DNA of 64,000 nt from Chloroflexota bacterium (GTDB lineage: Bacteria; Chloroflexota; UBA11872): contig JAJDZU010000004.1 in NCBI GenBank assembly GCA_022824495.1, positions 1 through 64,000 on the forward strand. Reading direction: 5' to 3'. Positions within the stretch are counted from its first letter, which is position 1; each line of letters starts with the position of its first letter. The notes beneath the pieces are model-generated. The model searched no databases. It worked only from the letters and a program-made list of their open reading frames with translations, and was not told the origin of the DNA. The position numbers and the translations under genes were made by a program. Positions 49,711 to 51,572 of the stretch are shown here, piece by piece.

Positions 49711-50559
49711 TCAATACGGAAGCTGAGTTTCCGGGTGGTCTTGCATGTATTTGGCCTGCGCGACGCCAAAGTTCTCCTGGATCTGGAGGGAGTGGCCGCC
49801 GTCGACGACGAGGGTGTGGCCGGTAATGAAGGAGGCGTCCTGGGAGCAGAGGAAGGCGACGGCGGCGGCGATATCCTCGGGCCGGCCGCAGCGGCCGACG
49901 GGGTACTGGGCTTCGAAGAACTCGTAGCCGGAGGGATTGTCGTCCCAGATGCCGGCCTGGATGTTCTCGGTGACGATGTGGCCGGGGGCGATGGCGTTGA
50001 TGCGGATGCCGTCGCGGCCGTACTCGACCGCCATCTGTCTGGTGGCGGCAATGAGGGCAGCTTTGCCGGTCTCGTAGACGAGCGCGCCGGGAGCGACAAG
50101 CAGGCCGTGGATGCTGGAGATGTTGACGATGCTGCCGCCGCCGGCCCGGCGCAGGTGGGGCACGCCGAATTTGGCCGAAAGGTAGCTGGCCTTGACTAGG
50201 ACGGCCATGGCGCGATCGTAGTCGTCGGGCGGGACCTCTTCGGCGCCACCGGTCACGGCTTCCATGGCGGGGTAGGCGTTGTTGACGATTATGTCGAGAC
50301 GGCCCCACCGATCTACGGCGGCCTGGATCATGGCCCGGACCTGATCGATTTCACCGACGTTGGTGGCACAGGCGGCGGCGGTGCCGCCGCTGGCCTGGAT
50401 GCGGGCGGCGCGTTCTTCGGCGCCTTCAGTGTCGATGTCGGCGATGAGGACTGAGGCGCCTTCAGCGGCGAGGCGTTCAGCGATAGCACCGCCAATGCCG
50501 GTGGCGCCGCCGGTGACGACCGCTCCGCAGTCCTGGAATCGACCGGTTGCCGCTGTCAT
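49711..50559 (-). CDS. Short-chain dehydrogenase/reductase
   Basis: A 282-aa SDR with T-G-G-A-T-G-I-G-G-A, A-D-I-D-T in strand two (NAD preference), N-N-A-Y, catalytic serine in N-I-S-S-I-H and Y-E-T-G-K. A C-terminal extension of some 20 residues follows V-D-G-G. The ATG at 50559 has AAGGA upstream; the open frame to 50661 is not needed. It follows the Mrr-like gene by 47 bp on the same strand. Confidence 0.88.
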   Translation of the reverse strand: MTAATGRFQDCGAVVTGGATGIGGAIAERLAAEGASVLIADIDTEGAEERAARIQASGGTAAACATNVGEIDQVRAMIQAAVDRWGRLDIIVNNAYPAMEAVTGGAEEVPPDDYDRAMAVLVKASYLSAKFGVPHLRRAGGGSIVNISSIHGLLVAPGALVYETGKAALIAATRQMAVEYGRDGIRINAIAPGHIVTENIQAGIWDDNPSGYEFFEAQYPVGRCGRPEDIAAAVAFLCSQDASFITGHTLVVDGGHSLQIQENFGVAQAKYMQDHPETQLPY

Positions 50560-50606: not shown

Positions 50607-51572
50607 TCAGCCGGTCAAGCTGAGGTAGTGGACGGGGGCGAGGCCGGATTGGGTGCGCCATTGGTTGAAGGTCATGCCGTCAATGAGGAAGAGGCGGTCG
50701 TTCATGGTTCCGCTTTCAATCATGCGCTGAGCATCGTCCGAGAAGCTGCCGGTGGTGATGAGGTAGGCGCGTTCGGCGCCGTGGAGCGACATGGATCCGA
50801 GGAGGTCGCTGACGGCCCGGTACTCGACGGCCTCGTCATGCGATTGCAGCTTGCACTGCACGATGGCTGATGGCTGCGATTTACTTCCGCCGGACTCGAA
50901 CAGCTTGAGGGCGATGCCCCGGCTGGCGGCATCGTCCTCGGCTTCGACTTCTTGATTGCTGAAGCGGCGGCTGAGCGTTTCGGCGACGACACGCTCGAAC
51001 TGGCTGGGGACGACGACGTAAAGCGCCTCGCCTTCGTATTCGGCCTGCGCCGGGAGACCCTGAGGTTCCGGGCTCGGCTGGGCCTCGGGCTGGGACGCGG
51101 CAGTGACCTGGGGCTGCGGCTGGCTGGCGGCCTGGCGATTTTCTTCAGAGAGTGCGCGCAGTCTTTCCTCGTATTCCGACTTCAGGCTATCCAGTTCGGC
51201 TTCGCGGGTGGAGAGTTCGGCCTGGCGGTTGGAGAGTTCCGCATCGTATTGCGATGAGTCGGCCGTCCGTTGAGGTCGTTGCGCACTGTAGAGCTCACGG
51301 TTTTTACGCCGAAGCTCCTTGATCTCAGATTCGTACTGGCCCTTCAGCGCGTCAACGGTGATCGCCTGATTGGCTTGCAGCTGTTCAATGCCCTCTCGCG
51401 AAAGCGACATATAGAGGGCAATAAACCAACAAATCAGTGTCCAACCCAGGAAGACATTAAGCGCGACTACCATTGTCTTTTCGCGATGAATCTTGGTTGC
51501 AACTATGATTGTTGGAAGAAAATACAGAACAATTATTGCGATAATCGTGAAGAAGCCGCCGATACCTTCCAC
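50607..51572 (-). CDS. Superinfection-immunity-like membrane domain fused to coiled coil and Mrr-like nuclease domain
   Basis: A 321-aa protein with three parts. Residues 5-60 carry two membrane helices and Y-F-L-P-T-I-I, then N-V-F-L-G-W-T, the pattern of the superinfection immunity family. Residues 70-150 form a charged coiled coil with repeats of E-L-S-x-R-x-A-E-L, then a Gln/Pro-rich linker. Residues 185-305 resemble an Mrr-type PD-(D/E)xK fold: F-E-R-V-V-A, V-Q-C-K (Q-x-K), Y-L-I-T-T-G-S-F-S and L-F-L-I-D-G-M. The expected G-x-D aspartate is replaced in R-G-I-A-L. GTG at 51572 has AAAGGAAA upstream. The 5' part is AT-rich. A defence or immunity role is inferred. Confidence 0.72.
   Translation of the reverse strand: MEGIGGFFTIIAIIVLYFLPTIIVATKIHREKTMVVALNVFLGWTLICWFIALYMSLSREGIEQLQANQAITVDALKGQYESEIKELRRKNRELYSAQRPQRTADSSQYDAELSNRQAELSTREAELDSLKSEYEERLRALSEENRQAASQPQPQVTAASQPEAQPSPEPQGLPAQAEYEGEALYVVVPSQFERVVAETLSRRFSNQEVEAEDDAASRGIALKLFESGGSKSQPSAIVQCKLQSHDEAVEYRAVSDLLGSMSLHGAERAYLITTGSFSDDAQRMIESGTMNDRLFLIDGMTFNQWRTQSGLAPVHYLSLTG

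What the first reader, a model, noticed from the sequence alone, without database searches (positions are those of the whole stretch)
50607..51572. Superinfection-immunity-like membrane domain fused to an Mrr-like nuclease domain
One 321-aa protein joins an N-terminal two-helix domain with the superinfection-immunity pattern (Y-F-L-P-T-I, N-V-F-L-G-W-T), a coiled coil, a Gln/Pro-rich linker and a C-terminal Mrr-type domain with V-Q-C-K, T-T-G-S-F-S and L-I-D-G. Mrr domains cut foreign or modified DNA, and phage superinfection proteins block DNA entry at the membrane. The fusion would place nuclease recognition at the site of DNA entry. The usual catalytic Asp (G-x-D) is not seen, so it may sense DNA rather than cut it. 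I know of no described system with this exact layout.
Basis: partly seen in the sequence, partly recalled or inferred. Interest (0 to 1): 0.72.

Follow-up and report, generated by a model that had tools for sequence, protein, structure and literature searches.

The report
Membrane-anchored Mrr protein, eroding active site
A small group of Chloroflexota bacteria carries, right behind the DNA-repair gene uvrA, a protein that ties a DNA-cutting-enzyme fold to the cell membrane through a phage-immunity-type anchor, and in several species, including this one, cutting residues have been lost while the rest of the protein is kept, so it may bind or sense DNA instead of cutting it.

Summary
The 321-aa ORF joins a PF14373 Imm_superinfect two-helix domain (47.5 bits, cut-off 27.9) to a PF04471 Mrr_cat domain (51.9 bits, cut-off 21) through a coiled coil and Q/P linker. 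The C-terminal model (pLDDT 87) matches MspJI, AspBHI and AF1548: a true PD-(D/E)xK fold. The catalytic Asp is Ala221; all eight related genes keep Asp, but three have lost the catalytic Lys. The fold stays under purifying selection (dN/dS about 0.2; 0.08 between two Lys-less copies). The fusion occurs in 8 of 13 genomes of the genus, always between uvrA and an SDR gene, and nowhere else in the Chloroflexota genomes searched. Three genomes of the genus without it have uvrA directly followed by the SDR gene. Best reading: a membrane-tethered Mrr module drifting from cutting to non-catalytic DNA binding or sensing. New variant of a known kind, moderate interest.

The parts
50607..51572 (-). CDS, 321 aa, GTG start: Imm_superinfect - coiled coil - Q/P linker - Mrr_cat fusion protein
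   Evidence: orthologues and dN/dS
51402..51527 (-). Imm_superinfect (PF14373) two-helix membrane domain, residues 16-57
   Evidence: (47.5 bits, cut-off 27.9); phrog_1039 'immunity to superinfection' 2.5e-18
51126..51395 (-). long helices / coiled coil, residues 60-149
   Evidence: AF2 full-length model helices 60-97 and 107-149 (block pLDDT 45-84); sequence
51042..51125 (-). Gln/Pro-rich linker, residues 150-177, variable in length and sequence among relatives
   Evidence: alignments
50658..51008 (-). Mrr_cat (PF04471) domain, residues 189-305, PD-(D/E)xK fold
   Evidence: model m9ab415b6d59b pLDDT 86.8; Foldseek MspJI, AF1548, AspBHI
50994..50996 (-). Glu193 (F-E motif), invariant in all 30 aligned Mrr sequences
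50910..50912 (-). Ala221 (GCC) where 29 of 30 aligned Mrr domains have the catalytic Asp
50850..50858 (-). Q239-C240-K241 (QxK motif); Gln invariant, Lys lost in three relatives (Ala, Gln, Gln)
50610..50681 (-). C-terminal signature DGMTFNQWRTxxGLAPVHYLSLxG, residues 298-321, 21 of 24 positions invariant in the family
51611..54628 (-). uvrA, directly upstream (38 bp gap), same strand
   Evidence: the gene follows uvrA in all 8 genomes with the fusion
49711..50559 (-). SDR oxidoreductase gene, downstream, same strand

Best explanation
The gene encodes a membrane-tethered Mrr/MspJI-type protein. The N-terminal Imm_superinfect hairpin is an anchor, the coiled coil is probably an oligomerisation stalk, and the C-terminal PD-(D/E)xK fold engages DNA (or a similar target) next to the membrane. 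The family probably derives from a nuclease but no longer depends on cutting: the window copy lacks the catalytic Asp and other copies lack the catalytic Lys, while the rest of the fold is kept. I infer that it binds or senses incoming or foreign DNA at the membrane, as an accessory barrier or dominant-negative binder. SHOWN: domains, fold, residue losses, selection, conserved locus. INFERRED: membrane location, oligomerisation, DNA binding, biological role, and on which side of the membrane the Mrr domain lies.
For: Both domains score over Pfam cut-offs. The C-terminal model has pLDDT 86.8; best Foldseek hits are MspJI 9e-5, AF1548 1.1e-3 and AspBHI 2e-3, and a profile search finds MspJI at 9.8e-11. 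The window is the only one of 30 aligned Mrr domains without Asp; Lys is missing only in three relatives of this family, while all 23 other Chloroflexota Mrr domains aligned keep both. At least three independent losses given the gene tree. Selection persists: Mrr-half dN/dS 0.19-0.24 window versus relatives, and 0.077 between the two Lys-less copies of G012 and G011. Other Chloroflexota use short membrane-anchored Mrr proteins.
Against: The other eight genes keep Asp and five of them also keep Lys, so some family members may still cut. The single-base change in the window could be an assembly error or a recent private mutation. No defence genes lie nearby. DNA binding is untested. The charge pattern (loop +2, C-flank -1 in the window; loop more positive than C-flank in 16 of 23 family members) weakly predicts that the C-terminus faces outside, which would not fit a cytoplasmic DNA-binding role.
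Confidence: 0.42

Rival explanations
1. An active membrane-anchored Mrr nuclease family with occasional dead alleles: relatives cut foreign or modified DNA, and the window copy is a recent loss-of-function allele.
For: Five of nine genes keep Asp, Gln and Lys; other membrane-anchored Mrr proteins in the phylum are intact; genomes G015 and G017 lack the gene, with uvrA directly followed by the SDR gene, within the clade that has it, so it is dispensable.
Against: Four of nine genes lack a catalytic residue; two of them (G011, G012) share a dead site and still show dN/dS 0.077 between them in the Mrr half; all nine reading frames are intact.
Confidence: 0.25
2. One reading: a phage-entry defence protein that combines a T4 Imm-like block of DNA entry with Mrr recognition at the entry site.
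For: The N-terminal domain matches PF14373 and phrog_1039 'immunity to superinfection' and phage superinfection immunity proteins at about 40% identity over 60 residues; the gene evolves faster than its neighbour uvrA (68-93% against 94-97% identity) and is patchily present.
Against: The same domain is fused to TPR, FN3 and DUF2510 modules in other Chloroflexota, which points to a generic anchor; there is no defence island; sharing a 42-residue hairpin does not transfer the function of T4 Imm.
Confidence: 0.15
3. A repair-linked membrane protein co-transcribed with uvrA that tethers damaged or modified DNA or the repair machinery.
For: Same strand and 38 bp behind uvrA in the window, and behind uvrA in all 8 genomes; a 3-methyladenine glycosylase gene lies nearby.
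Against: uvrA is followed directly by the SDR gene in relatives without the gene, so uvrA works without it; one conserved insertion site does not show a shared function.
Confidence: 0.1
4. An extracytoplasmic-facing protein in which the PD-(D/E)xK fold is a scaffold without nucleic-acid function.
For: The positive-inside rule favours a cytoplasmic loop and external C-terminus; catalytic residues vary while an unusual C-terminal 24-residue signature is 21/24 invariant.
Against: The topology inference is weak, based on a simple charge count; Glu193 and Gln239 of the active site stay invariant.
Confidence: 0.08

Closest known systems
EcoKMrr and Mrr_cat (PF04471) type IV restriction endonucleases
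   Same: Mrr_cat domain over the curated cut-off; PD-(D/E)xK fold; Q-x-K motif; TTGxFS and LIDG motifs
   Different: No winged-helix N-terminal domain; membrane hairpin and coiled coil instead; catalytic Asp replaced by Ala in the window
MspJI / AspBHI modification-dependent endonucleases (catalytic domain)
   Same: Best solved-structure matches by fold and by profile
   Different: No SRA-like reader domain; membrane-anchored; active site incomplete
Short membrane-anchored Mrr_cat proteins of Chloroflexota (such as L151, L152, L155, L159, L079)
   Same: N-terminal predicted membrane helices followed by Mrr_cat
   Different: Their anchors are other helices, without the long coiled coil and Q/P linker, and all examined keep GxD and QxK
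T4 Imm and PF14373 Imm_superinfect proteins (phage and bacterial)
   Same: Two-helix domain with YFLPTI ... NxxLGWT signature, over cut-off
   Different: Those are mostly small standalone proteins; here the domain is a module of a larger protein
NA-iREase1 (PF22722), inactive REase domains of NACHT conflict systems
   Same: Concept of a catalytically dead REase fold kept as a module; weak similarity (22.1 bits)
   Different: Below the curated cut-off of 27 bits; no NACHT NTPase

Membership tests
Imm_superinfect (PF14373) | profile match over gathering score | tested here: met
   47.5 bits against 27.9, full 1-42 of the model; relatives also
Imm_superinfect (PF14373) | confers superinfection immunity / blocks DNA entry | not testable with these tools
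   needs phage challenge; the domain is also joined to unrelated modules
Mrr_cat (PF04471) | profile match over gathering score | tested here: met
   51.9 bits against 21
Mrr_cat (PF04471) | PD-(D/E)xK fold | tested here: met
   AF2 pLDDT 86.8 and Foldseek hits to MspJI, AF1548, AspBHI, EcoT38I
Mrr_cat (PF04471) | complete D ... QxK active site | tested here: not met
   Asp replaced by Ala221 in the window; QxK kept; three relatives lack Lys. PD-QxK as the catalytic site: PMC12707154
Type IV restriction enzyme of EcoKMrr type | N-terminal winged-helix reader domain | tested here: not met
   no such domain in the Pfam scan; the N-terminal part is membrane hairpin and coiled coil
Type IV restriction enzyme of EcoKMrr type | cuts modified DNA | not testable with these tools
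   needs biochemistry
NA-iREase1 (PF22722) | profile match over gathering score | tested here: not met
   22.1 bits against 27; relatives 20-26 bits
Known anti-phage defence system | defence genes in the neighbourhood | tested here: not met
   ten neighbours scanned against PADLOC; hits only for UvrA, to ATPase-type models

The most novel reading that the evidence does not exclude
A nuclease-dead membrane sensor family: an Mrr fold locked to the membrane by a phage-type immunity hairpin that captures incoming DNA at the site of entry without cutting it, with repeated independent loss of catalysis as a switch from cutting to sensing.
Probability: 0.18. Interest if true: 0.68.

Novelty: new variant of a known kind. 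Interest (0 to 1): 0.42.

Why it matters
Restriction-type domains are usually thought of as soluble cutters. A conserved membrane-anchored version that repeatedly loses its catalytic residues yet stays under purifying selection would be a natural case of a restriction fold turned into a DNA-binding or sensing module, and its close relatives with intact, Asp-less and Lys-less active sites give a ready-made comparison set for testing this.

Tried and rejected
Chance or artefact ORF: rejected, because orthologues are intact and dN/dS is about 0.2. Phage or plasmid gene: no full-length match in phages, plasmids or IMG/VR; only the N-terminal part matches phage proteins, and the C-terminal part weakly matches two plasmid restriction endonucleases. 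Defence island: not found. Pfam and NCBIfam hits to coiled-coil families are low-complexity matches and were discarded. The full-length AlphaFold model was poor (pLDDT 54) and used only for helix positions; the C-terminal domain was refolded with a 30-row alignment. Literature searches with family names gave nothing on the fusion. The fusion could not be searched for in other phyla except by one pattern scan of genome contigs, which finds close relatives only.

Full report
OBSERVATION. The ORF at 50607-51572 (-) is real: 321 aa, GTG start, ribosome-binding-like GAAAGGA, 38 bp after uvrA. hmmscan gives PF14373 Imm_superinfect at 16-57 (1.6e-12, 47.5 bits, cut-off 27.9) and PF04471 Mrr_cat at 189-305 (9.6e-14, 51.9 bits, cut-off 21). 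PHROGs gives phrog_1039 'immunity to superinfection' at 2.5e-18 for the N-terminal part. PADLOC gives only weak hits to the candidate PDC-S02 and a type IV REase model over the Mrr part.

FOLD. A full-length AlphaFold model on nine close relatives was poor (pLDDT 54) but placed helices 4-27, 30-57, 60-97 and 107-149. The C-terminal 146 residues with a 30-row alignment gave pLDDT 86.8, pTM 0.84. Foldseek against PDB: MspJI 9.0e-5, AF1548 1.1e-3, AspBHI 2.0e-3, EcoT38I 2.4e-3; the profile finds MspJI at 9.8e-11 and LlaBIII at 1e-8; viral structures named restriction endonuclease match down to 2e-7. So the C-terminus is a PD-(D/E)xK fold of the Mrr/MspJI kind.

ACTIVE SITE. The Mrr_cat site is described as PD-QxK (PMC12707154). 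In the 30-row alignment Glu (FE) and Gln (QxK) are invariant; the Asp column is D in 29 rows and A only in the window; the Lys column is K in 27 rows, A in L020 and Q in L023 and L024. In the nine-gene family, five genes have a complete site, one lacks Asp and three lack Lys. On the gene tree this needs at least three events, since G011 and G012 are sisters. The window change is one base (GAC to GCC) in a draft genome and is not checked against reads.

SELECTION. Pairwise NG86 dN/dS is about 0.2 for the whole gene against close relatives, 0.19-0.24 in the Mrr half of the window against the others, and 0.077 in the Mrr half between the two sister Lys-less copies. 84 of 145 Mrr-half positions and 21 of the last 24 residues are invariant. 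The fold is thus under selection while its catalytic residues are not held constant. I did not run a branch-specific test.

DISTRIBUTION AND SETTING. The window lies in a Chloroflexota genome (titles of near relatives). The fusion was found in 8 genomes (9 genes) out of 13 of the genus, in none of the 6 genomes of the other genus in the family, in none of the other 22 genomes held for the class, and in none of 400 phylum genomes beyond these. It lies between uvrA and an SDR gene in all. G015, G017 and G007 of the same genus have uvrA directly followed by the SDR gene with nothing between. In the uvrA tree G015 and G017 lie inside the group that has the gene, so loss or exchange has occurred. 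The gene evolves faster than uvrA (68-93% against 94-97% identity). Neighbours are uvrA, SDR, MFS, Gfo/Idh, TIM-barrel, methyladenine glycosylase, GNAT and other genes, with no defence system.

WHAT THE PARTS ARE ELSEWHERE. PF14373 was over cut-off in 48 of 400 Chloroflexota genomes, mostly in short open frames of about 70-120 aa; others are fused to TPR (L073), FN3 (L071) and DUF2510 (L067). Short standalone copies also exist in this genus. So the domain looks like a generic two-helix anchor and its name does not transfer a function. Mrr_cat was found in 149 of 301 genomes; of the 21 fetched about half are short proteins with one to three predicted N-terminal membrane helices, and all examined keep GxD and QxK. 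So a membrane-anchored Mrr is not new, but this anchor, the coiled coil and the eroding site are.

TOPOLOGY. A simple charge count gives a more positive inter-helix loop than C-flank in 16 of 23 family members (3 opposite) and in the window (+2 against -1). By the positive-inside rule the C-terminus would face out. This is weak and needs a reporter test; it matters because it decides whether the Mrr domain can meet cytoplasmic DNA at all.

MECHANISM. I commit to a membrane-tethered Mrr module that has moved from cutting towards binding or sensing DNA (0.42). Shown: domains, fold, residue losses, selection, locus. Inferred: membrane location, oligomerisation by the coiled coil, DNA binding and role. 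Inactive enzyme domains kept as binding or dominant-negative modules in conflict systems are described in PMC7159879. Rivals are listed with their tests.

NOVELTY. New variant of a known kind: the domain pair and the repeated active-site loss at a conserved chromosomal locus are unusual; the parts are known. Other phyla were not searched in depth.

Noticed in passing
L015:1495-2418 and L021:9059-9982 (genome G014): A tandem second copy of the fusion gene (54% identical to the window protein), with intact Asp and Lys, directly behind the first copy.
   Followed up: partly
L015:2552-3058 and L020:4156-4662: A 168-aa ORF with no Pfam match (scanned for the G014 copy) sits between the fusion gene and the SDR gene in two genomes (G014, G009); in the other genomes the SDR gene follows at once.
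   Followed up: partly
window:51399-51572: The membrane-domain coding part has GC3 0.48 against 0.81 in the Mrr half and 0.87 in uvrA; the other copies show the same in weaker form. It may be a more recent acquisition.
   Followed up: partly
L023, L024 against window: Synonymous divergence differs strongly between segments (membrane 0.13, coil 1.53, Mrr 0.44 for window-L023), so the gene looks mosaic, with segments exchanged between lineages.
   Followed up: partly
L010, L011, L013, L016, L017: Short standalone Imm_superinfect proteins elsewhere in genomes of the same genus.
   Followed up: no
L073, L071, L067: Imm_superinfect fused to TPR repeats, FN3 and DUF2510 modules in other Chloroflexota.
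   Followed up: partly
window:56592-57155: A methyladenine DNA glycosylase (Tag-like, PF03352) lies about 2 kb past the start of uvrA, a second repair gene in the area.
   Followed up: no
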